Below are positions 3,285 to 16,740 of a stretch of DNA of 64,000 bases, in pieces (position 1 is the stretch's first letter; every line of letters starts with the position of its first letter). A program made the translations under genes and the position numbers. The stretch comes from Leptothermofonsia sichuanensis E412. GTDB lineage: Bacteria > Cyanobacteriota > Cyanobacteriia > Leptolyngbyales > Leptolyngbyaceae. Below the pieces are notes generated by a model. The model saw only the letters and a list, made by a program, of their open reading frames with translations, ran no database searches and had not been told where the DNA came from. The stretch lies in NCBI RefSeq assembly GCF_019891175.1, contig NZ_CP072600.1:1984001-2048000 (forward strand). The letters are read 5' to 3'.

Positions 3285-3314
3285 CTTGATTATTGAAAGT
3301 CTTCAATAATCAAG
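3285..3314. repeat. Perfect 13-bp inverted repeat (hairpin)
   Basis: Thirteen bases on each side pair perfectly around a four-base loop (arm CTTGATTATTGAA). It sits 19 bases after the surE remnant stop. It could be a terminator-like hairpin or part of a small mobile repeat; no T-run follows, so simple intrinsic termination is uncertain. Confidence 0.6.
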
Positions 3315-3369
3315 ACCTGGAGGCACGCCAGGGGGATGCCCAGGCATTAGGAAAACGGAGGATTGGGCT

Positions 3370-5707: not shown

Positions 5708-7180
5708 GTGGAAGTAAGCGAAGCCGATCAAGAGTTTCTGCAACAACGGCTGCATGCTCAAATTCAACTTATCCCGGTTGACGAAATCAGTTATCGCAAA
5801 TGGTATCGCAAACAAACGATTGACCATCGCACGGTTGCCACGGCTCAATTTATTGATCCCCTGACTGGAGAGGCGGAGGTCGAAGATATTTCTGAGATCA
5901 CAGAATTGTCTTTGGCCCAGACTGAAAATCAGATTGAGCGGGTGAAGGCGATTGTCGCCCTTGCTCTGCGCAGCCGTGCCAGTGACATTCACCTGGAGCC
6001 TTCAGCCAGTGGTTTACGAGTCCGGTTTCGGATTGATGGCATTCTGCGTCATGTCACCACCTTTCCCCCCGAAATCAGTCGTCGGGTAGTGGTTTCCATC
6101 AAGGTGATGAGCGAAATTGATATCGCTGAAAGCCGCCGTCCCCAGGACGGACGCATGGCAGAAAAGTACATGAGCGCTGATCAGCAATCCCAGGGACTTG
6201 ACCTGCGCGTCAGTACTCTGCCTTGCATCAGTGGGGTGCAGGGAGAAATGGGGGAAAAGGTGGTGATGCGTCTGTTACGCCAGCAAAATACATTTCAAAC
6301 GATTAAAGATATCGGGTTTTCCGAATATAGCCGCCCCATTTACCAGCACTGGCTTCAGCAGCTCCAGGGAATGATTATCTTGACTGGACCGACTGGCTCT
6401 GGAAAAACCAGTACGCTCTATACCAGCTTACAGGAAATCGTCAGTGAAGCAGTTAATTTTGTCACCGTCGAAGACCCGGTTGAGTATGTATTTCCAGGGA
6501 TTACCCAGACTCAGGTGAATGAAGCCGCTGGCATGACCTTCGCCGCAGGTTTGCGCTCCATCCTGCGTCAGGATCCAGACATCATTATGCTGGGAGAAAT
6601 CCGCGATCATGAAACCGCCGAAACTGCGGTGCGGGCAGCCTTAACCGGGCATCTGGTTCTGACCACTCTGCATACCAACGATGCGATCGGAGCAATTCCC
6701 CGCCTCAAAGATATTGGTCCCGATCCGGGATTGATCAGCGATGCTCTGTTAGGGGTGGTTGCTCAACGACTTGTCCGTCGAGTTTGTCCTCATTGTGCTG
6801 AATCTTATACCCCTACGGAAGCAGACCTGAAAATCCTGGGTTTAAGCTGGGAAGATGCCGCTCCCCAGGCGTGGCGGAAAGGACGGGGGTGCAATCAGTG
6901 TTTTAATTCCGGTTACTTAGGTAGGGAAGCGTTGATTGAGCTACTGGATGTGAATGAACCCATTCGCCAGTTAATTTACGAAGGCTCCATGACTCAGCTT
7001 CAGCGGTACCTGGAGCGCAGTCAGTTTGAATCCTTCCGCACGGCTGCGATCGTCAAAATAACCCAGGGCATTACCACGGTGGATGAAATCAGGCGAGTGT
7101 TACCCTTCAGTGCCCTCTATCCCAGAAACGCCCATGAACCCCCTGGTCTACAGCCACTTAAATTAACTCAGGCTTCGTAA
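5708..7180 (+). CDS. Type II/IV secretion ATPase (GspE/PilB family)
   Basis: A 490-residue hexameric-type traffic ATPase that powers pilus assembly or type II-like secretion from the cytoplasmic face. Walker A GPTGSGKTSTLYT, an Asp-box (FVTVEDPVEY), Walker B DPDIIMLGEIRD and a His-box (LVLTTLHTNDA) are present. A four-Cys zinc motif (CPHC...CNQC) near residue 365-400 is characteristic of GspE/PilB. Cyanobacterial PilB is about 670 residues; this one has only a short N-terminal region and lacks a full MshEN domain, so it is a paralogue rather than the main PilB. The GTG start at 5708 is chosen because the frame closes upstream. Its closeness to the lectin/CHAP gene hints at one transcript, but no function link is proven. 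Confidence 0.87.
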   Translation: MEVSEADQEFLQQRLHAQIQLIPVDEISYRKWYRKQTIDHRTVATAQFIDPLTGEAEVEDISEITELSLAQTENQIERVKAIVALALRSRASDIHLEPSASGLRVRFRIDGILRHVTTFPPEISRRVVVSIKVMSEIDIAESRRPQDGRMAEKYMSADQQSQGLDLRVSTLPCISGVQGEMGEKVVMRLLRQQNTFQTIKDIGFSEYSRPIYQHWLQQLQGMIILTGPTGSGKTSTLYTSLQEIVSEAVNFVTVEDPVEYVFPGITQTQVNEAAGMTFAAGLRSILRQDPDIIMLGEIRDHETAETAVRAALTGHLVLTTLHTNDAIGAIPRLKDIGPDPGLISDALLGVVAQRLVRRVCPHCAESYTPTEADLKILGLSWEDAAPQAWRKGRGCNQCFNSGYLGREALIELLDVNEPIRQLIYEGSMTQLQRYLERSQFESFRTAAIVKITQGITTVDEIRRVLPFSALYPRNAHEPPGLQPLKLTQAS

Positions 7181-7236
7181 AAAAATTACCTTCCCTGGTC
7201 ATACTTTTCATTTGATCCTGGGTACTCTAAAAGCGA

Positions 7237-7290
7237 ACTGCCCACTGTACTTCACACTCCCGTACTTTACTCAATTGAAAAACGCTATAG
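7237..7290 (-). repeat. Palindromic repeat family C, partial copy
   Basis: Read on the minus strand it begins CTATAGCGTTTTTCAATTGA and continues GGGAGTGTGAAGTACAG. This matches the copies at 32499-32592 and 55797-55894 over their first half. Confidence 0.6.
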
Positions 7291-7392
7291 CGATCTGAGT
7301 CCTATGGATGAATTACCGGATCAGTACCTTCGACAACTGATCGAAGCCGTCCAACGAACCGAAAATTTGCTCTACTTTACCAAACCCACATT

Positions 7393-7927
7393 ATGACGTA
7401 GCCGCTACCACTACCTCAACCATCAACCCCACTTCCTAACCTGCACCATCGTTAACTGGCTTGCCCTCTTTAGCAACCCAGAAATTGTGCAAATTGTTTT
7501 AAACTCACTCACATTCTTGCAATCCCATCAGCGTCTCGCAATCCACGGATATGTGATCATGGAGAACCACCTTCACCTGATCGCCTCCTCCCCAAACCTG
7601 TCGAAAGAAATTGCAAACTTTAAATCCTTTACAGCCCGCGCTACAGTCGATTGGCTCAAAACAAACCAATCCAGATATTGGTTGAACCAGTTAGCTATCC
7701 ACAAGCAATCTTACAAAACAGATCAGCAATACCAGATGTGGCAGGAAGGAGCACACCCACAGGCAATTTTGGATTGGAAAATGTTTCAACAAAAGTTAGC
7801 ATACATTCACAATAATCCAGTTCAGCGTGGATATGTAGATGATCCATCCCATTGGCGATACTCCAGCTACCGAAACTATGCAGGGCAGGAAGGCATTTTA
7901 TTGATCGATTGGTTAGAGGCTAAATAG
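7393..7927 (+). pseudogene. REP-associated tyrosine (Y1/HUH) transposase, 5' frameshift
   Basis: Members of this family (RAYT) cut and join single-stranded DNA at REP palindromes. The body encodes YHYLNHQPHFLTCTIVNW, the HUH-type motif ENHLHLIAS and the C-terminal YIHNNPVQRGYV...HWRYSSYRNY block with the candidate catalytic Tyr. The family start is expected at ATG 7393, but that ATG is one base out of frame; removing one base near 7399 would give M-T-S-R-Y-H-Y and about 177 residues, the usual size. As it stands the longest start codon in frame is internal (7487). A REP-like palindrome follows immediately, as usual for RAYT genes. A 30-codon frame (7304-7396) just upstream is not recognised. 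Confidence 0.75.
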
Positions 7928-7931
7928 AGAA

Positions 7932-7985
7932 TAGAGAGGCGGAGCCTCTAGAGGTCGGTTCCCAGGCAGAGCCAGGGAACGAGGG
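7932..7985. repeat. REP-like palindrome next to the transposase
   Basis: GAGGCGGAGCCTC palindrome followed by GGTTCCCAGGCAGAGCCAGGGAACGAGG, starting five bases after the transposase stop. The same GTTCCCAGGCAGAGCC...GGGAAC core occurs at several other intergenic sites here, fitting a mobilised REP family. Confidence 0.65.
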
Positions 7986-8274
7986 AGTAGCAGGTTAATT
8001 TTCTTAACAGGTTAATTTTCTTAAAAAAAATCAGGGTCAGACCCTCCATACGCTATTCTCTACATCTAGCGTTTCTTCTAGCACTAACCCTGACTTTACA
8101 CAACATAGGATGGTCAAACCCGAATCCCTGGATCTCCCTGTCATTCAAAAAACCTACGACCTGATTCAATGGTACATTCCTATCCTGAATCGGCTACCCC
8201 GCGATCACCGCTTTACCCTGGGAGAACGGATGATAAACGGACTCTACGACTTGTTGGAATGCTTACAGCGGTTC

Positions 8275-8844
8275 TCAGATGAATAAGCCACAGTGATTGA
8301 ACCAGCCAAGGGCATCGTCAGCAGAAATACACTCGTTGATAATCCTGGTTAAAGCTTGGTCGAGCGCTTCCTGCGTTCGAGCCTTGGCTGAACGCAGGAG
8401 CTGCTTGAGTTTTGACCAACATAGTTCAATCGGTGAAAGGTCTGGGGAATAAGGCGGCAGAAACACAACCTTGGCTCCAACCGATTCAATTGCCGCTTGC
8501 ACGACTGAAGCATGATGCACGGGTAGATTATCCATCAGCACGATCGCCCCTACCCACAATTGCGGAATCAGAATCTCCTGGATGTAGAACAAGAACACGT
8601 CAGTATTGACACTGCCAACAATACTCATGCTAGCAATCAACCCATCAATACTCATGCCACCAATCAACGAGATATTCTTGCCCCCATCGCCAGGAGCCTC
8701 AGTGTCATACAAGCGTTCACCGATGGGGGCACGACCAGACAAACGAGTCATTGCCAGATGGATGCCCGTTTCATCAATGAAAACCAAGTTGCGCGGGTCG
8801 ATTGTAAAACTCCACAGGCGATAAGCAAACCGCAAATCCTTCAC
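8275..8844 (-). CDS. IS630-family transposase, frame B (DDE catalytic part)
   Basis: The catalytic half of the transposase. The acidic triad is visible: FIDETG (first Asp), LMDNLPVH (second Asp) and [11 protein letters not shown] (Glu). After a -1 shift at the A-run, frame B begins T-L-I-A-S-Q-Q-D-T before the first Met at 8844, so the real product is an A-B fusion of roughly 320 residues. Both frames look intact, so the element may still be active. Confidence 0.87.
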
Positions 8845-8870
8845 CCTTTGAGTATCTTGCTGGGAGGCAA

Positions 8871-9230
8871 TCAGTGTTTTTTTTTGACGCTGAGCTTGAG
8901 CTTAGACACAGCCTGTTGCATGGTTGATATACTCACCTCCACTCCACTTTGTTGGGCAAAGCGTTCACACAACTCCTTGAGTAGGGCATCCGGTTGAGCC
9001 GTGACTAGGGCTTCAACGATGGGCAACTGCTCTTTGCCCAACTTGGCAATGGCTCCTCCTCCGTGCGCTTTAGGCTCCACGGTGCCTGTCTCACAATAGT
9101 GTCGCCTTAGATCTCGAATGAACGATAAGCTCACCTTGAAGCGCTCTGCCAGTTGCCGTTGTGATCCTTCTTGAGCTTCATAGGCTGCCATGATTCGTTG
9201 CCGTAGATCAACTGACAGAGGGGCGGGCAT
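8871..9230 (-). CDS. IS630-family transposase, frame A (DNA-binding part)
   Basis: A 119-residue N-terminal part with a helix-turn-helix region (DLRQRIMAAYEAQEGSQRQL, then AERFKVSLSFIRDLRR) and a second winged-helix-like segment. It ends in SVKKKH at a run of nine A residues (8877-8885). A -1 ribosomal shift there would continue into frame B, as in many IS630 elements. The element interrupts the Avd-like gene and is read in the opposite direction. Confidence 0.85.
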   Translation of the reverse strand: MPAPLSVDLRQRIMAAYEAQEGSQRQLAERFKVSLSFIRDLRRHYCETGTVEPKAHGGGAIAKLGKEQLPIVEALVTAQPDALLKELCERFAQQSGVEVSISTMQQAVSKLKLSVKKKH

Positions 9231-9604
9231 AAGCAGCTAGCTCCTAGCTTTTGATAGTTGTTTTAGCCTACCAGAATGTGGCTTACTCAATCAATAACGG
9301 CTGTAATTTGCGCTCGATACAGCCACCACAAACTTGAACAACTCGAACACCTCAATCACCGCCTCGATCTTTTACGCCACCAGACCCGACTGCTGCTCGA
9401 CTTCAGCCTGATGCAAACCGAACGGTACGAGTATGCTGGAAAATTACTGAACGACATTGGCACTGAATTAGGCGGCTGGATCAGACAGCAACGCCAACGG
9501 AAGGTTACCCAATGAAACGACACGGCAACCTCTGGGCACAGGTGATCGATTATCAAAACGGTAATGTTCTAGGTTTGTTGTTTTCCTTACGAAGAACTGG
9601 TTAG

Positions 9605-9925
9605 ATGGAGAAGTCAGTAGTTGCGGGAACTCAAGTTATGGTATTAGAACCAATTCACTGCCCTGTGTGTGATGGGATTGAGGTGATCAAACACGGCACA
9701 ACACCAGACGGCAAACAGCGCTACTTTTGTCAAAACTCAGGATGCCATCGGCGCACCTTTATTTTGCAATACACCTATCAAGGGTATCTGCCTGAAGTCA
9801 AGCAACAAATCAGCGATATGGCAATGAATGGGAGTGGGATTCGAGACACTGCCCGTGTCCTTCACATTAGTCCAACGACGGTGATTGAGGAATTAAAAAA
9901 AAAGATCGTCAACTCAAAGCCGTGA
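9605..9925 (+). CDS. insA: IS1-family InsA-like protein
   Basis: A 106-residue DNA-binding protein with an N-terminal zinc-ribbon (CPVCDGIEVIKHGTTPDGKQ, then RYFCQNSGC) and a helix-turn-helix (SGIRDTARVLHISPTTVIEE). It ends after a run of nine A residues (9895-9903), where a -1 shift joins it to the next frame to make the InsAB transposase. This matches the control used by IS1. Confidence 0.87.
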   Translation: MEKSVVAGTQVMVLEPIHCPVCDGIEVIKHGTTPDGKQRYFCQNSGCHRRTFILQYTYQGYLPEVKQQISDMAMNGSGIRDTARVLHISPTTVIEELKKKIVNSKP

Positions 9926-10389
9926 ATGAACTCAAACTGGCTGAGTTGGAACCCGCTCAAAGCATCGTAAAGCTTTGCCAGGGGGAAGATACAGAGGCAG
10001 AAGCCGATGAAATGTGGAGTTTTGTCCAGTCTAAAGCCCAGCAACGTTGGTTATGGCATGCAATTGACCATCACAGTGGAAAAATATTAGCTTATGTGTT
10101 GGCGACGCATCAAGATGAAGCATTCCTCCAACTCAAAGCGTTATTAGAACCGTTTGGAATTATGCAGTTTTACACAGATGGTTGGGGAACCTATGAGCGG
10201 CAGCTTGACCCAAGTCTTCATACCGTTGGCAAACAGAACACGCAGAAGATTGAGCGTAAGCATTTGACTTTACGCACGCGCTTGAAGCGATTAGCTCGCA
10301 AAACTATTTGCTTTTCTAAGTCCATTCTGATGCATGACATTGTGATTGGGCTATTTATTAACCGTTATGAGTTTGGTTTTGCTATCTAA
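9922..10389 (+). CDS. insB: IS1-family InsB-like transposase part
   Basis: The 155-residue catalytic part. DEMWSFVQSKAQQRWLWHAI carries the first acidic residue; FYTDGWGTYE the second; RKHLTLRTRLKRLARKTICF and later residues match the IS1 DDE-type C-terminus. Its ATG overlaps the InsA stop by ATGA, but the expected product is the InsAB fusion made by -1 frameshift at 9895-9903. Its TAA (10387) is followed in the same frame by the interrupted reverse transcriptase. Confidence 0.87.
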   Translation: MNELKLAELEPAQSIVKLCQGEDTEAEADEMWSFVQSKAQQRWLWHAIDHHSGKILAYVLATHQDEAFLQLKALLEPFGIMQFYTDGWGTYERQLDPSLHTVGKQNTQKIERKHLTLRTRLKRLARKTICFSKSILMHDIVIGLFINRYEFGFAI

Positions 10390-11471
10390 CCTAAAACAAC
10401 AAGTCTAGAACACGACCATCAAAACCTCCTGGCTGCCGCTCGACAGGCTCAGCAAGGCAAGCGATTTCGACCCAATGTGCTGCGCTTCAACTACGACCTG
10501 GAAAAGGAATTAGCTCAACTTCAGCATCAACTTTTGACCAAAACCTATCAACCCGGAAAATACAAAACATTCAAAGTCAAAGAACCTAAAGCTCGCCTGA
10601 TTTCGGCGGCTCCCTATCGAGATCGGGTTGTGCACCATGCCCTCTGCACCGTGATCATGCCCATCTTCGAGCGTACCTTCATTCGCCACTCTTACGCCAA
10701 TCGGTCTGGGTTTGGCACTCACCGCGCCCTGAAACGCTTCACCCAATTTCCCCGTTCTAGTCGTTACGTTTTACAATGCGATATCCAAAAGTATTTTCCC
10801 AGTATTGATCAGCAGATTCTTAAGCAACTACTTCGACGTAAAATTAAATGTCCAGACACTCTCTGGCTGATTGACACAATTATCGACGGCAGTAATGAAC
10901 AGGAACCTGTTATTCAATACTTTTCAGGTGATGATTTGATCACCCCACTACAACGACGCAAAGGGCTTCCCATCGGCAACCTGACCAGCCAATTTTTTGC
11001 CAATATTTATCTCAATGGCTTAGATCATTTCGTTGTCGAACAACTCAAAGCTGGAAAGTATCTACGATACGTCGATGACTTTGCGTTGTTCTCCGATGAC
11101 CGTAGTTTTCTAGCGGATGCCCGCCCTGTGATTGAAGATTTTTTAGCAACTCTCAGACTCACAATTCATCCCATCAAAAGCCAGCTTTTTGCAACCCAAA
11201 TCGGACCAACCTTTGTGGGGTTTCGGATTTTTCGAGATCACATTCGAGTTAAGTCAGCCAATCTCCAGCGAGCCAGGTATCGGCTCCGTCGATTAAAGAA
11301 AGAATACGCTACAGGGAGTATTTCCTTTGAACGACTCACCCAATCGATCCGGAGCTGGGGGTCTCATCTCTGCCATGCAGATACCTGGCATTTACGGCAA
11401 GACATCTTTTCAAACCTGGTGTTCACAAAACCTTAAGTTTCCACAACCTTAAATCATTCTCTGCTTTTTCT

Positions 11472-11492
11472 AAGGCTCAAGAATGGAGCCTT
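11472..11492. repeat. Short hairpin upstream of the template repeat
   Basis: Seven-base arms AAGGCTC and GAGCCTT around a seven-base loop, 36 bases after the reverse-transcriptase stop and just before the template repeat. It may be part of the structured template RNA. Confidence 0.4.
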
Positions 11493-11499
11493 ATGGTAT

Positions 11500-11640
11500 A
11501 GGTGGGGCAGATCAGCCTGGCTGCTGCGGGGCGGTTCCTGGTACAACAACCCTGGAAACTGCCGCTCTGCCAACCGCAACCGGAATACGCCGACCAACCA
11601 GAACAATAACATCGGGTTTCGTGTCGTCTGTGCTTCCCCC
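11500..11640 (+). other. DGR template repeat (TR), boundaries approximate
   Basis: The RNA from this segment is expected to be copied by the DGR reverse transcriptase with random changes at adenines. Read in the frame of the reverse transcriptase it encodes [20 protein letters not shown] and then [17 protein letters not shown]. This is the C-terminal end of an FGE/C-type-lectin fold, the usual fold of DGR targets. About ten of the Asn codons are AAC/AAT, the adenine-rich pattern of template repeats. It is not part of a target gene: the frame only extends back to the reverse-transcriptase stop 63 bases earlier. The GC-richer block GGGTTTCGTGTCGTCTGTGC at its end is where the initiation-of-homing sequence would be. 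No second copy (variable repeat) is present in this window. Confidence 0.75.
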
Positions 11641-11739
11641 TGCACTCTTCAGTGCCAGAGTCGATGGATGGGAATTCATCGAGCGTGCCGAAGAAGAGTC
11701 CAGATCTGCTCCTGTGATGCTGTTAACGGCATCCAAAAA

Positions 11740-11841
11740 TCAAACTCAGCCGGATGGTTTGGTAGGTTCGCCGAAGACCCGTCCGGCTTCAACCATCCTC
11801 ACTACTGGTCAGCTTTTACGCTGGTTGGCAATCCCTGGTAG
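11740..11841 (+). pseudogene. Remnant of a CHAT-domain protein C-terminus
   Basis: The frame ends with [18 protein letters not shown] and TAG at 11839-11841. The HPYYW-x-x-FTLVG-x-PW ending is characteristic of CHAT (caspase-like) domain proteins in cyanobacteria. The upstream CHAT sequence is missing, so this is a leftover 3' end between the template repeat and the anti-sigma-like gene. Confidence 0.5.
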
Positions 11842-11891
11842 CCACTCCCGTTTGCCAGAGTTTGAGGAGGGTTGCAAACCGTTCGAAATTT

Positions 11892-11932
11892 GCCTGACTT
11901 CGTTTCAGGTCATATCGCTTTTCAGCAACGCC
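11892..11932. repeat. MITE-like family A, partial copy (right half)
   Basis: CCTGACTTCGTTTCAGG...CGCTTTTCAGCAACGCC matches the right half of the 80-bp elements at 19830 and 47985. The left end is absent. Confidence 0.5.
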
Positions 11933-11965
11933 GACTTTCAATTCAGAGGGTGATTCAGCACCACT

Positions 11966-12460
11966 TCAGGTAACCAGCGGAGAGCGAGAGGCTTCTCTGA
12001 CCCGCTTACACAGCCTCAGTTCGGTTCCCTTAGAATTCCACTGAACCTGATCAAAAACCTGGTGCAGAATATACATTCCCCGACCACACTCCCATTCATC
12101 ACAGGGAAGATGCTTACTAGGGCTACCATTGCCGGAACTGACAGCGGAAAAATCAGTATGGCTGGGGTTACTGCAACAATCGTGGGGTAGCTGAAACCCG
12201 TCGCCCTGGTCTGAAATTACCCACCAATAATGGTTCGCTACAGAAGAAAAACGGACAAGAACCGTTTTGTTGGGATCGAGCTTATTGCCATGCTTGGCAG
12301 CGTTCACCAGTGCTTCTTGAAGTCCGAGGCGGATCTCTGCCCGCCATCGAGGGGGAATCTCAGCCAGCAACAGATCCAGAATTGGAATCAAATAAAGCGT
12401 AGAAGCGAAGCTGAGCGTATTCCATTGGCGTCTAACGGGACGAGATGAGACTGCAATCAC
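11966..12460 (-). CDS. RsbW-like ATP-binding (anti-sigma/serine kinase type) protein
   Basis: A 164-residue stand-alone HATPase_c domain of the GHKL family. The N box EALVNAAKHGN, the G1 box DQGDGF and the G2 box CGRGMYI are visible. Such proteins act as anti-sigma factors, serine kinases or partners in partner-switching systems in the cytosol. A stretch between G1 and G2 (about residues 105-132) is longer than usual and rich in Ser and His. No sigma factor or antagonist gene lies next to it, so its partner is unknown. The gene stands alone, between DGR debris downstream and a 390-base gap upstream. Confidence 0.83.
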   Translation of the reverse strand: MIAVSSRPVRRQWNTLSFASTLYLIPILDLLLAEIPPRWRAEIRLGLQEALVNAAKHGNKLDPNKTVLVRFSSVANHYWWVISDQGDGFQLPHDCCSNPSHTDFSAVSSGNGSPSKHLPCDEWECGRGMYILHQVFDQVQWNSKGTELRLCKRVREASRSPLVT

Positions 12461-12850
12461 TCAAAAAACCCCGTAGCTTTGCAAGTGGACAGATGTATTC
12501 AACCAAAATATCGCCCAATAAAACCCTAAAATCAGCCTGCATCCATACAACCTACCTAAACGATTGAGAGGTCATCCGTCTAGAAGTGTTGACCTTGCTG
12601 ACTCCAGGCAGATTCAGGAGAACCCGGAATAAACCAGCAAAAATAAATATTCAAAAAAAATATTCAAAAGAGGTTCAAAAAGCGCTTAATCAGCGCAGGA
12701 AATTGCTGAAATCAGCATTCCCTCATCTTCTATAGTACCAAAATAGTATCAAAGTGCCTCCGGAGAAACCGATCCGATACGAATTTTCAATCATTGGAGG
12801 GGTGTTTTATCTGCATTTTGAACCTGTTGGCTGGATCAGGGGCGATCGCC
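12461..12850. other. Intergenic region, no gene seen
   Basis: 390 bases separating two minus-strand genes. It is AT-rich near 12630-12690, with repeated AAATATTCAAAA blocks. It probably holds the promoter of the RsbW-like gene. I see no RNA gene or clear terminator. Confidence 0.4.
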
Positions 12851-13489
12851 CTAAAACAGTTGCTCCAGATACCGAAAATCTTTTTCAACTTCTGCCCAAA
12901 GGGAGCGGTTATGCGGATCGGTACGCAGGGCTTTCTTGAGGTAATTTCGGGCTTTGTCAAGCTGGCGTTCCTGAATCAGGTGGCGTCCCCAGCGCTGATA
13001 AATAATGGCCTGCCACTGAGACACTTCAGGATCGTGGGGAATTCGCCGTGCCAGCCCTTCAACCAGGGCGATCGCCCTGGGAAACCGCTGTTCCCTCAAT
13101 AATTGCTGGAGTTGCTGGTAAGAGCTTACCTTTAACTCTTGCTCTAAGGGAGACAAATTAGGGTTAAAGCAAATGGAGGCTGGTTTACGGGGTTCCCTGA
13201 CTCGACTAGACGGCTCACTGGTCCCAGACTGGCTGACCGTCACGGAGGTTGCTGGTGTACGAGCGATGGTGACCGATTCAGCTTTACCGTTGATCTCGGA
13301 GCGAATGCTGGTGGACAACAGAAGCTTGTAAGCCTCGGTCACCGCCATGAACTTATCCCTTGCTCGCTCATCTCCAGGATTGACATCCGGGTGATATTGT
13401 CTTGCCAGGCGACGATAAGACGCTTTGATGTCGTCAAATGATGCACCAGACTGCAACCCCAGTAATCGGTAACACTCGGCAAGTTTCAT
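12851..13489 (-). CDS. J-domain protein with C-terminal TPR-like helices
   Basis: A 212-residue J-domain co-chaperone-like protein. The N-terminal J domain (ECYRLLGLQSGASFDDIKAS, then RQYHPDVNPGD) has the HPD tripeptide needed to stimulate Hsp70. After a Ser/Thr-rich linker the C-terminal half has helical repeats (EQRFPRAIALVEGLARRIPH and ERQLDKARNYLKKALRTDPH) typical of TPR units. It lacks the G/F and zinc-finger regions of DnaJ, so it is a type III J protein. ATG 13489 is chosen because AGGGA lies five bases before it; another ATG at 13528 lacks such a site. Its Hsp70 partner and client are unknown. Confidence 0.83.
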   Translation of the reverse strand: MKLAECYRLLGLQSGASFDDIKASYRRLARQYHPDVNPGDERARDKFMAVTEAYKLLLSTSIRSEINGKAESVTIARTPATSVTVSQSGTSEPSSRVREPRKPASICFNPNLSPLEQELKVSSYQQLQQLLREQRFPRAIALVEGLARRIPHDPEVSQWQAIIYQRWGRHLIQERQLDKARNYLKKALRTDPHNRSLWAEVEKDFRYLEQLF

Positions 13490-13560
13490 TGAATCCCTGA
13501 GAGCAACAATGGCAAAATAATCTAGCATTTTGCCATTGTCATCCTAATTTCGTAAGGGGT

Positions 13561-14154
13561 CTAGCTTACTTTCTCGATCACGCTGTCAATCAAGCCATAG
13601 TTTTTAGCTTCTTCCGCCGACATGAAATAGTCCCGATCTGTGTCCTTTTCAATTTTTTCCAGCGGTTGCCCGGTGCGCTCTGCTAGAATTTCGTTTAACT
13701 GGCGTCGAATCCGCAAAATTTCCCTGGCTTCAATTTCAATATCGGTTGCCTGCCCCCGCGTTCCCCCCAGGGGCTGGTGGATCATAATGCGAGCGTGGGG
13801 AAGTGCCAGCCGTTTACCCTTGCTTCCAGCGGCCAGCAGGAAAGCTCCCATCGAGGCCGCCAGTCCCACACAGATGGTGACCACTTCAGATTTAATGTGC
13901 TGCATGGTGTCATAAATTGCCATGCCAGCCGTGACTGACCCGCCTGGGGAATTGATATAGAGATAGATGGGCTTTGAGGGATCTTCAGAATCCAGATAAA
14001 GCAGGTAGGCGACGATCGCATTGGCAATGCCATCATCTACTTCTTCAGATAGAAAAATAATCCGTTCCCGAAATAATCGCTCATAAATGCTGATCCAATC
14101 CTCAACCGGATTGCCAGGAAGGCGATAGGGAACACTGGGAATACCGATCGGCAT
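13561..14154 (-). CDS. clpP: ATP-dependent Clp protease proteolytic subunit (catalytic)
   Basis: A 197-residue serine protease subunit of the Clp complex. The catalytic triad is complete: Ser in [11 protein letters not shown], His in [10 protein letters not shown] and Asp in [12 protein letters not shown] 14154 is preceded by GGAG at a suitable distance; the frame upstream is a polypurine tract and unlikely to be translated. It is the last gene of a three-gene same-strand cluster with two ClpP-like subunits lacking triad residues. In cyanobacteria and chloroplasts, mixed ClpP/ClpR rings are known; this arrangement suggests one catalytic subunit co-made with non-catalytic ones. Confidence 0.93.
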
Positions 14155-14164
14155 AGGGAAACTC

Positions 14165-14225
14165 CATGAAAAGTGGATAGAGGAAAGGGGGAGGGAGGGA
14201 TGAGGAGGGAGGAGCTGCTGCTGCT
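14165..14225. repeat. Polypurine/polypyrimidine tract
   Basis: Runs of AGAGGAAAGGGGGAGGGAGG followed by CTCACTGCTCACTTCTCACC between two Clp genes. It is one of several such tracts in this window (also 1275-1350, 17060-17195, 19312-19370, 33820-33960, 34866-34990). Confidence 0.6.
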
Positions 14226-14251
14226 CACTGCTCACTTCTCACCTCTCACTC

Positions 14252-14917
14252 TTAACCTGCGATCGCTGCCACAGGTTGAGGCAGATGCTTCGAACTCTCT
14301 AAAACATGGTCAATCAGCCCGTAGTCCTTCGCCTGATGGGGAGTCATATAGAACATCCGATCCATATCTTTGGCGATTTTTTCCCTCGGTTGACCCGTAT
14401 TGCGAGACAGAATATCTAGAACCAGTGCCTGCTTTGACAAAACTTCTCCAGCATCGATCTGAATATCTGTTGCCTGTCCCCGGGTGCCTGTGCGGGCATG
14501 GGTTAGCGCAATCATTGAATGGGGCAGACTGCCTCGTTTACCTCGGGTGCCTGAGGACAACAGCAGCGCTGCCATGCCGATCGCCTGCCCCAGACAGATC
14601 GTAACAATGTCTGACTTGACGTGCTGCATTGTATCGTAGATAGCCAGAGTCGCAATCACGGACATCATACCTGCCGACTCATTTGTCATGCCAGTGGCAA
14701 CCGGGTCCCCATAGGAGTTGATGTAAATATAAATGGGTTTGGTCTGGTCATCCGAATCAAGGTACAGCAGCGCTGAAACCAGGGAATTCGCCAATCCTGT
14801 GGTTACTGGCTGATTGAGGAAGATAATCCGTTCCTGACTGAGTCGGGTATAAATGCTTACCCACTGCCAGTAAGGGCTGCCAGGGACATTGTACGGAACA
14901 AGCAGGTTTTCATCCAT
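14252..14917 (-). CDS. ClpP-like subunit lacking triad residues (ClpR-like)
   Basis: A 221-residue member of the ClpP fold family. The Ser position reads GQAIGMAALLL (Ser replaced by Gly), and the His position reads MIALTHARTGTRG, where Thr aligns with the catalytic His; the Asp region KDMDRMFYM remains. It also has an extra segment of about 13 residues (TGMTNESAGMMSVIATLAIY) near the substrate-groove helix, not seen in the catalytic subunit next door. It is therefore probably a structural or regulatory ring subunit. It lies 24 bases downstream of the first clp gene of the cluster and 97 bases upstream of clpP. Confidence 0.85.
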   Translation of the reverse strand: MDENLLVPYNVPGSPYWQWVSIYTRLSQERIIFLNQPVTTGLANSLVSALLYLDSDDQTKPIYIYINSYGDPVATGMTNESAGMMSVIATLAIYDTMQHVKSDIVTICLGQAIGMAALLLSSGTRGKRGSLPHSMIALTHARTGTRGQATDIQIDAGEVLSKQALVLDILSRNTGQPREKIAKDMDRMFYMTPHQAKDYGLIDHVLESSKHLPQPVAAIAG

Positions 14918-14940
14918 AGGTCAAGATGCGAAAAAATAAT

Positions 14941-15630
14941 TTACGCCACACCAGCGGGTAAAGGCTTTGGCAGATCCTTCACGCTTTCCAGGACGCGATC
15001 AATCAATCCGTAGTCTTTAGCCTGTTCAGGGGTCAAATAGAACATGCGATCGGTATCCTTCGCAATCTTTTCAGGAGGCTGCCCTGTATTTTTGGACAAA
15101 ATATCCAGCATGGCTGCCTTGTTGGCCAGTACTTCCTTAGCACGAATCTGGATATCCGTTGCCTGACTGCGTCCCATTCCCATGCGTGGCTGGTTCAACA
15201 CGATGGTGGCATGGGGCAGGCTGGCGCGAAAGCCTTTGGTGCCAGCAGACAGAATCATGGCAGCCGTTCCCATTGCCTGACCAATGCAAATGGTATGGAC
15301 AGGGGGTTTGACGTAGTTAATCGTGTCGCAGATGGCAAAGGCTTCCGTCTCCTGCCCGATCGCATCCCCGGTATACCAGGAAGTGCCTGTCGAATTGATG
15401 TAGAAGAAGATTGGCTTCTCTGGATCGGAAAATTGCAGGTATAGCAACTGAGCAATGATGAGCTTGGTCACGTCAACCCCAAGTTGACGTTTGAAATCAT
15501 CAGACGACACCAGGGGCAACCCCAAGTAGATGATCCGCTCTTTTAATAACAATGAGGGCAGATCTGGGGGAGGACGACGGTAATAAGCATCACCGTAGTA
15601 TTGAGATTGCATAGCTTGGATAGAACTCAT
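14941..15630 (-). CDS. clpR: ClpR-type non-catalytic Clp subunit
   Basis: A 229-residue ClpP homologue with two of three catalytic residues changed: GQAMGTAAMIL (Ser to Gly) and IVLNQPRMG (His to Asn), with KDTDRMFYL kept. An N-terminal extension (YYGDAYYRRPPPDLPSLLLK) and the segment STGTSWYTGDAIGQETEAFA are characteristic of the cyanobacterial ClpR branch. It likely forms mixed heptameric rings with catalytic ClpP, placing chaperone-docking surfaces without protease activity. The ATG at 15630 fits the homologous start; upstream codons in frame look non-coding. First gene of the cluster, so the promoter is expected in 15640-15900. Confidence 0.88.
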   Translation of the reverse strand: MSSIQAMQSQYYGDAYYRRPPPDLPSLLLKERIIYLGLPLVSSDDFKRQLGVDVTKLIIAQLLYLQFSDPEKPIFFYINSTGTSWYTGDAIGQETEAFAICDTINYVKPPVHTICIGQAMGTAAMILSAGTKGFRASLPHATIVLNQPRMGMGRSQATDIQIRAKEVLANKAAMLDILSKNTGQPPEKIAKDTDRMFYLTPEQAKDYGLIDRVLESVKDLPKPLPAGVA

Positions 15631-15906
15631 AGCAGGGGTCACCTGAAACCTGTTGCCTAATTTTCTGTAGCGGAAAACGCTATTTATCCATACTAGCGTG
15701 ACAGTTGATCGGGTGTTGAAGAAGTGCCGCATCGGGGCAGCAACGAGCTGGCAGCAAAAAATGTAAAATTATGTAAATATTTGAGATAGGAGCTATCAGG
15801 AAACGATTAGATTTGCCGCTATAGGACGAATTTGGTGTGATTGAATGCTTCACGTTCCGATGGGTCAAGGGGTTTAACGGTTACTTACTGCACTCAGGGC
15901 TGTCTC

Positions 15907-16740
15907 ATGGCTTCTCCTTTTAATTCGGCTTTTCATAATTCTGCTTTCAACAACGAGTCGCTGTTTCCCCGCTCATGTTCACTGGATCTGAGCAATGTTG
16001 ACCGCAGTGATCCTGAGTTAATGCAGGCGCTGGTAGAGAACCAGACGCTCAAGGAGCAAATCGCCAGCCAGACTCAGTTTATGCATTTGCTGACCCATCA
16101 ACTGGCAACGCCGTTGACTTCCTTGAGTGGCTCCGTCGATCTTTTGACTGAACCTGCCCTCGATACCGAGCATCGACAGGAATTTTTGAACTTAGTCAGG
16201 CAGCAGGTCAGTCGGTTGCAGGATTTGCTGGCAGACCTGACGGCGATTCGGAGCCTTGAAACGGGGGCACTGGAAACCCATGCCTCTGGTTTTAGCCTGG
16301 TCAGCCTGGTGGAGGAGGTTATTGATTCGTTTCATCCCTATCCGATCTCAGGTGATGTGGGGGCTGACCTGCCGCTGGTGTGGGGCGATCGCTGGCAGGT
16401 TTCTCAAGTTCTGGTGAATCTGTTGTCGAATGCGATTAAGTATTCACCCGACGGCAGCCCGGTGGAAGTGGGTGCCCATCTGCTGTCCTCCGGATGGATG
16501 GAAATTTGGGTAAAAGATTACGGTCTTGGCATTCCTGAAGCAGACCGGCCCTATCTATTTGAGCGGTTCTATCGGGTCAGACATTGCGATCGCCACCACA
16601 TCCAGGGCACTGGACTGGGGCTTTCTCTTTGTAAGCTGCTGGTCGAAAACCAGGGTGGACAAATGGATTTTGAATCTGTGCATGGCAAGGGAAGCCGATT
16701 TTACTTCACGTTACCCACTGCCCAGGGGTCAAATCGATAA
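15907..16740 (+). CDS. Soluble sensor histidine kinase
   Basis: A 277-residue protein with a dimerisation/phosphoacceptor domain (H box HLLTHQLATPLTSLSG, about residues 65-130) and a catalytic ATPase domain (N box LVNLLSNAIKYSPDG; G1 DYGLGIP; F box YLFERFYR; G2 GTGLGLSL). The N-terminal 60 residues show no membrane helix and no sensory domain, so the signal must come through a partner protein. No response regulator lies adjacent, so it is an orphan kinase. ATG 15907 is chosen over an upstream TTG (15841). It faces away from the clp cluster, and the two may share a divergent promoter region. Confidence 0.87.
   Translation: MASPFNSAFHNSAFNNESLFPRSCSLDLSNVDRSDPELMQALVENQTLKEQIASQTQFMHLLTHQLATPLTSLSGSVDLLTEPALDTEHRQEFLNLVRQQVSRLQDLLADLTAIRSLETGALETHASGFSLVSLVEEVIDSFHPYPISGDVGADLPLVWGDRWQVSQVLVNLLSNAIKYSPDGSPVEVGAHLLSSGWMEIWVKDYGLGIPEADRPYLFERFYRVRHCDRHHIQGTGLGLSLCKLLVENQGGQMDFESVHGKGSRFYFTLPTAQGSNR

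What the first reader, a model, noticed from the sequence alone, without database searches (positions are those of the whole stretch)
11500..11640. Template repeat present but no target gene in this window
Seen: one segment encoding LRGGSWYNN...IGFRVV with about ten AAY Asn codons, in no long gene of its own. There is no second copy with adenine substitutions in these 64 kb. Known: DGR targets may lie far away. Inference: the target is in trans, on another replicon, or was lost after the RT was disrupted.
Basis: partly seen in the sequence, partly recalled or inferred. Interest (0 to 1): 0.7.

Follow-up and report, generated by a model that had tools for sequence, protein, structure and literature searches.

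The report
Orphaned template of a gene diversifier
A cyanobacterium keeps an intact template for mutating one of its genes, but jumping genes have broken the machinery that reads the template and the gene it served is not on the chromosome; a second, complete system sits elsewhere on the same chromosome.

Summary
The template repeat (TR) is real: window 11519-11642, followed without a gap by a conserved structured RNA (to 11795). Both belong to a cyanobacterial diversity-generating retroelement (DGR-A) that is broken. An IS630-like element splits avd. An IS1, identical to seven other full-length copies in the genome, splits the reverse transcriptase (RT). The target gene, upstream of avd and RT in most relatives, is missing: searches of the one-contig genome find no variable repeat (VR) for this TR. 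The closest relative still has one: a 1155-aa HEAT-NACHT-FGE protein whose VR differs from its TR at 12 A sites and 0 of 95 other sites within the repeat. So the target was most likely lost; a plasmid copy is not excluded. About 590 kb away a complete second DGR has two FGE targets, each with 13 differences at A plus one at the 3' boundary; they do not fit this TR. The flanking RNA is a divergent form of Rfam RT-14. Of 144 related genomes it was found in all 21 with a DGR-like RT and in 16 where none was found, so RT-less DGR templates seem common.

The parts
11519..11642 (+). TR-A, template repeat (26 A of 124 bases; encodes the FGE/C-type-lectin variable segment)
   Evidence: Aligns to the TR (106 of 124 identical) and the VR of the closest relative; AAY-rich
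11643..11795 (+). Structured RNA immediately 3' of the TR; its first helix begins at the TR/VR boundary; Rfam RT-14-like
   Evidence: Rfam RF02921 at 11643-11789, 46.7 bits, below the 48.1 gathering score; 151.5 bits with own model R1; 38 of 40 consensus pairs standard here; 30 of 40 pairs have changes on both sides in 22 sequences
9512..9559 (+). 5' fragment of the DGR reverse transcriptase gene (MKRHGNLWAQVIDYQN)
   Evidence: homology to the relative's RT start
9560..10417 (+). IS1-family element (InsA/InsB) inserted in the RT gene, flanked by 8-bp direct repeats ATCAAAAC
   Evidence: 40 scored matches of 59 candidates in the genome, 8 of them with the full self score including this one
10418..11436 (+). 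Rest of the DGR RT gene, open; contains PIGNLTSQ and YVDD
   Evidence: RVT_1 E 5.2e-20; 68% identical to RT-B of the same genome, 85% to the RT of the closest relative
8110..8265 (+). 5' part of avd
   Evidence: Aligns to the avd part of the closest relative, which scores DivGenRetAVD 81.7 bits against a cut-off of 80
8266..9303 (-). IS630-like element (ORFs 8275-8844 and 8871-9230) inserted in avd at a TA
9304..9515 (+). 3' part of avd
7487..7927 (+). REP-associated tyrosine-transposase-like ORF lying where the target gene is expected; homology to the relative's DGR starts at 8014
   Evidence: NF047646 71.4 bits, below the cut-off of 80; break point

Best explanation
This is the still intact TR-RNA gene of a recently inactivated cyanobacterial DGR. 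In the working ancestor the order was target gene with VR, avd, RT, TR-RNA, on one strand. The TR-RNA was reverse transcribed with errors at its adenines by RT-Avd, and the cDNA replaced the VR of a target ending in an FGE/C-type-lectin domain, probably a NACHT-type sensor as in the closest relative. Here the target was removed, an IS630-like element entered avd, and an IS1 entered the RT. The TR-RNA survives without reader or recipient. Shown: anatomy, insertions, no VR found on the chromosome, a matching target upstream of avd in the relative. Inferred: mutagenic homing itself (known from other DGRs), the identity of the lost target, and that DGR-A is now inactive.
For: Order: VR upstream of the RT and TR downstream on the same strand in 30 of 34 loci with a TR/VR pair; 39 sources scanned, of which 37 are a part of the 80 loci. 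Closest relative (G010): TR and VR differ at 12 of 29 A sites and 0 of 95 other sites within the 124-base repeat, with three further non-A differences just past its 3' end; the target is 1155 aa with HEAT, NACHT and FGE domains, followed by the 5' part of avd. Insertions flanked by TA and ATCAAAAC. The IS1 has seven other full-length copies with the same score, so it probably entered recently. The RT after the insertion shows no excess of nonsynonymous change: 28 N and 51 S on the window branch, 22 and 49 on the relative's, 51 sites ambiguous. No VR found in the genome. Target break at 8014.
Against: The RT might still be made from an internal start such as GTG 10477, and RT-B with Avd-B (RT 68% identical) might act on this TR-RNA in trans. 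The genome is held as one contig, so a plasmid-borne VR is not excluded. The patterns allow 3 mismatches, so a VR changed at more non-A sites would rest alone. The relative's target may not be the one lost here.
Confidence: 0.9

Rival explanations
1. The TR is still used in trans: RT-B and Avd-B of the second DGR read TR-A RNA and diversify a target on a plasmid that is not in the assembly.
For: RNA-A keeps the fold (151.5 bits, against 129.7 for RNA-B). RT-B is open. Related TR-RNA sequence is on 10 plasmid records; of the three I read, one has target, avd and RT annotated. Action in trans is reported for Thiohalocapsa (PMC10907252, passages).
Against: No VR for TR-A found on the chromosome. 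The best long plasmid match is 74% over 87% of the query; nothing in the phage records; no exact match of the 3' TR motif in viral contigs. The DGR-B VRs fit TR-B at every non-A site up to the boundary base but differ from TR-A at 28 and 29 non-A columns, gaps included.
Confidence: 0.07
2. The segment is a worn-out FGE gene end (a VR relic or paralog), not a template.
For: It encodes an FGE-like C-terminal segment.
Against: Ten AAY codons and the TR-type 3' end CACTCTTC, where VRs mostly have GACTC-like ends. It runs into the RNA that R1 finds at 37 of 37 loci of the TR/VR scan, 17 of them not used to build the model. The RT gene, not an FGE body, lies just upstream.
Confidence: 0.02
3. Convergent or chance AAY-rich sequence.
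For: None found.
Against: Same place, strand and 88% identity as the TR of the closest relative; covarying RNA structure behind it.
Confidence: 0.01

Closest known systems
Cyanobacterial DGRs (clade 5; Vallota-Eastman et al. 2020, PMC7517822: abstract, part 1 of 3 of the Results section, and passages seen)
   Same: RT, Avd, TR, targets with C-type-lectin/FGE ends
   Different: DGR-A lacks the target and has insertions in avd and RT; that survey identified DGRs by RT, target and TR together, so such loci would not be counted
Transposon-degraded DGR loci of Thiohalocapsa PB-PSB1 (Dore et al. 2024, PMC10907252: abstract, sections 7 and 18, part 1 of 2 of section 11, and passages seen)
   Same: IS and MITE-like elements break or replace RT or TR; NACHT and ternary-system targets
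   Different: In the cases described there targets persist without RT or TR; here the template persists without a target
Rfam RF02921 RT-14 RNA
   Same: In the window and in DGR-B the whole model matches, beginning at or within a few bases of the TR/VR boundary
   Different: Both matches are below Rfam's gathering score (46.7 and 32.3 against 48.1); the cyanobacterial form needed its own model
BPP-1 TR-RNA spacer (sp), as described in a passage of PMC12875486
   Same: Structured RNA directly 3' of the TR
   Different: No sequence or structure comparison with BPP-1 was made here; a role in recruiting RT-Avd and priming is inferred by analogy

Membership tests
Diversity-generating retroelement (DGR-A, window) | DGR-type reverse transcriptase gene | tested here: met
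   RVT_1 domain; 85% identical to the RT of a relative with a TR/VR pair; disrupted by IS1
Diversity-generating retroelement (DGR-A, window) | Accessory gene avd | tested here: met
   Present in two pieces around an IS630-like element; the relative's avd part scores over the DivGenRetAVD cut-off
Diversity-generating retroelement (DGR-A, window) | Template repeat near the RT | tested here: met
   11519-11642
Diversity-generating retroelement (DGR-A, window) | Variable repeat in a target gene differing from the TR at A sites | tested here: not met
   None found on the chromosome. So the locus is filed as an inactivated remnant, not a working DGR; the feature is met in the closest relative
Diversity-generating retroelement (DGR-B, about 590 kb away) | RT, avd, TR and VRs with A-restricted differences | tested here: met
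   Two VRs, each 13 mismatches at A plus one C-to-G at the 3' boundary; avd 134.5 bits; RT RVT_1
Rfam RT-14 RNA | Score over the family's gathering threshold | tested here: not met
   46.7 against 48.1 bits, E 2.3e-4; placed like RT-14 and matching its whole length, so taken as a divergent form
Mutagenic retrohoming activity | cDNA made from the TR and VR replacement | not testable with these tools
   Needs an experiment

The most novel reading that the evidence does not exclude
DGR template RNAs (TR plus the RT-14-like element) are units that outlive, and may be kept apart from, their reverse transcriptase. They persist in RT-less genomes with preserved fold, either alone (as in this window's locus), beside a target with a clean A-only VR, or fused to a target as if recombination between VR and TR had removed avd and RT. 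They may act as satellites used by an RT from elsewhere, or have gained a role of their own.
Probability: 0.12. Interest if true: 0.75.

Novelty: new member of a known kind. Interest (0 to 1): 0.42.

Why it matters
The cyanobacterial survey I read identified DGRs by RT, target and TR together (PMC7517822), so loci that lost one part are not counted. The RNA that follows the TR can be searched without an RT. In 144 related genomes it pointed to 16 with a DGR template-type RNA and no DGR RT found. That gives a way to count how often these hypermutation systems are switched off, by insertion as here or by loss of the RT, and to test whether a template without its own RT is dead or can be served in trans.

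Tried and rejected
Considered and rejected: VRs of DGR-B as targets of TR-A (28 and 29 non-A columns differ, gaps included); the FGE gene at 3.01 Mb as a target (16 mismatches in 48 aligned bases, 6 of them at A); a plasmid, phage or viral VR (plasmids and phages by blastn, viral contigs by one exact pattern only); a remnant of the NACHT target in the window (one 20-aa tblastn match at 3308-3367, E 0.03, not pursued). The Rfam RT-14 model was too strict for a survey (4 of 144 genomes, none over the cut-off, the own genome missed), so an own model was built.

Selections and flaws: of the 80 loci I gave 37 to the TR/VR scan. Of 36 template sequences at hand (34 with a TR/VR pair, the window, L066), 28 went into alignment A1 (left out L072, L079, L081, L083, L089, L092, L094, L106) and 22 into A2 (also left out L067, L069, L076, L078, L084, L093); structure and model rest on A2. 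The genome searches with RNA models use stricter filters and scored at most 20 candidates per genome, so genomes without a match are not proven to lack the RNA. In one search the anchor was wrong for L199 and L204; G005 (L204) was redone, L199 (an extra RNA in the RT-bearing genome G049) was not. In one search the avd 5' translation was one base out of frame and the TR-A/G010 identity was out of register; one search gives the right identity.

Literature: searches for RT-14 and for DGR template RNA structure in the held library listed no paper whose title or abstract start links RT-14 to DGRs. The paper I recall as describing the RT motifs (Weinberg et al. 2017) is not held, so novelty of that link is not claimed.

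Full report
Observation. The segment exists as described. In frame it encodes [35 protein letters not shown], with 10 AAY codons among 42 counted, in a 134-codon open frame. An A-tolerant scan of both strands of the window finds no second copy. By comparison with the closest relative the TR is 11519-11642.

The locus. Going with the strand: avd (8110-8265 and 9304-9515) is split by an IS630-like element (8266-9303) flanked by TA. The RT (9512-9559 and 10418-11436) is split after 16 codons by an IS1 (9560-10417) flanked by ATCAAAAC. The IS1 has 40 scored matches (of 59 candidates) in the genome, among them seven other full-length copies with the same score as itself, so this insertion is probably recent. 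The remaining RT frame is open and shows no excess of nonsynonymous change against its closest relative, with L078 as outgroup (28 N / 51 S against 22 N / 49 S; 318 codons, 51 sites ambiguous).

The missing target. Of 39 sources scanned for TR/VR pairs (37 of the 80 loci, the window and DGR-B), 34 have a pair; L066, L068, L073, L099 and the window have none. In 30 of the 34 a VR lies upstream of the RT and the TR downstream on the same strand. In the window, homology to the relative's VR-avd spacer begins only at 8014; upstream lies a REP-associated tyrosine-transposase-like ORF, below its family cut-off. It has its TR on contig C267. On contig C375 it has a 1155-aa protein with HEAT, NACHT and FGE domains whose VR differs from that TR at 12 A sites and at 0 of 95 non-A sites within the repeat; three more non-A differences lie just past its 3' end. 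Its avd is also interrupted, within about 125 bases of both contig ends, probably by another IS (inference). In the window's genome a DNA search, a protein search and two A-tolerant patterns with up to 3 mismatches find no VR for TR-A. The relative's target finds FGE domains and the TR itself, no NACHT part. So the target is most likely gone from the chromosome.

A second DGR. At 1.40-1.41 Mb, about 590 kb from the window's locus, lies DGR-B (L029): avd, RT (68% identical to RT-A), a TR on the opposite strand, and two FGE targets of 276 and 1158 aa. Each VR differs from TR-B at 13 A sites and at one C-to-G at the 3' boundary. Beside it are an AAA ATPase, a VMAP-M1/VMAP-C/EAD9 protein and a TIR-EAD9 protein. 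That resembles the ternary conflict setting that Dore et al. describe for multicellular cyanobacteria (PMC10907252, part 1 of section 11); the MoxR-domain match is below its cut-off and Pfam showed no vWA domain in the target. TR-A does not fit its VRs.

The RNA after the TR. The 150 bases after TR-A match Rfam RT-14 from its first to its last position, starting at the first base after the TR, at 46.7 bits, just below the gathering score of 48.1. DGR-B gives 32.3 bits. In 22 aligned relatives the structure has 40 pairs, 30 with changes on both sides. 95.2% of cells pair, against 81.6% in shuffles and at most 46.4% when the partner is slid by 1 to 3 columns. The structure was derived from these same sequences, which favours it in the slide control. 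The window keeps 38 of 40 pairs. A model of this RNA (R1) was run on 88 sources and gave 68 matches in 66 of them: 62 of the 80 loci, the window, DGR-B and two contigs of G010; 18 of the 80, mostly from distant phyla and archaea, had none. It matched all 37 loci of the TR/VR scan, 17 of which were not used to build it. Matches outside Cyanobacteria (record titles: Acidobacteria, Marinimicrobia, Poribacteria and others) are mostly weaker, and in several the RNA lies before the RT. Where a TR/VR pair is known the RNA begins within about 10 bases of its end. Helix 1 begins where TR and VR stop matching, which may be why TR and VR differ there (mostly CACTC-like in TR, GACTC-like in VR). That is an inference.

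Templates without an RT. In 144 related genomes R1 is found in 37, including all 21 with an RT at E 1e-30. In the other 16, an RT profile at E 1e-5 finds nothing over 132.2 bits, where the best DGR RTs of four control genomes score 462 to 517; six of the 16 have no match at all. The weaker matches are probably group II intron and retron RTs (inference), apart from RT fragments beside the RNA in G081 and G095. The 16 loci, read with up to about 6 kb on each side where the contig allows, sort as follows. Five have a target, a TR and the RNA with a clean VR: 13 to 17 mismatches at A and 0 to 2 elsewhere (G027, G051, G103, G118, G124). One is weaker (G098, 3 at A and 4 elsewhere). Six have FGE-coding sequence that runs straight into the RNA (G005, G006, G007, G038, G046, G133), as recombination between VR and TR would leave it (inference). 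Three have TR and RNA with no VR in the stretch read, like the window (G013, and G081 and G095 with RT remnants). One is unclear (G034, 51.6 bits, near a contig start). Most are drafts and two of the 16 are under 90% complete (G027, G034), so some RTs may be missed; for G046 and G095 (one contig each) that is less likely.

Verdict. The finding is sound and is explained: an orphaned template of an insertion-broken DGR, whose target has most likely been lost from the chromosome rather than moved within it. As a kind it is known (transposon-degraded DGRs). What is less usual is that the template and its RNA are the parts that stayed intact, and that RT-less templates are frequent in the relatives.

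Noticed in passing
L029 (G000:C1:1395001-1414000), 6951-16562: A complete second DGR in the same genome, with two FGE targets and neighbouring AAA ATPase, VMAP/EAD9 and TIR-EAD9 genes, resembling a ternary conflict system.
   Followed up: yes
window 11643-11795; L029 7827-7997 (-): RT-14-like RNA directly after the TR, with strong covariation, found by model R1 at 62 of the 80 RT loci.
   Followed up: yes
L247-L262 (16 genomes in which no DGR RT was found): TR-RNA or target-RNA units without an RT in 16 of the 37 RNA-bearing genomes; five have clean A-only TR/VR pairs.
   Followed up: partly
L247, L248, L249, L253, L254, L262: FGE-coding sequence that ends directly in the RNA, as if VR and TR had recombined and deleted avd and RT between them.
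   Followed up: partly
L240 5031-5197 (Picosynechococcus sp. PCC 7002 plasmid pAQ6); L241 4118-4269 (Microcystis aeruginosa NIES-2481 plasmid p1): The RNA (108.3 and 129.5 bits) with no RT in the gene table of the 8 to 10 kb read (that table is incomplete); in pAQ6 a shortened TR-like stretch precedes it.
   Followed up: partly
window 11788-11841: Seventeen codons [17 protein letters not shown] and a stop resemble the end of a CHAT domain (Pfam E 0.044, below cut-off); possibly a relic of a lost gene.
   Followed up: partly
L166 (G010:C375) and L066 1-122: In the closest relative avd is also interrupted, at a different place, near both contig ends.
   Followed up: partly
window 9560-10417: IS1 element with at least 40 matches in the genome, many full-length and near identical: a recent burst.
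   Followed up: partly
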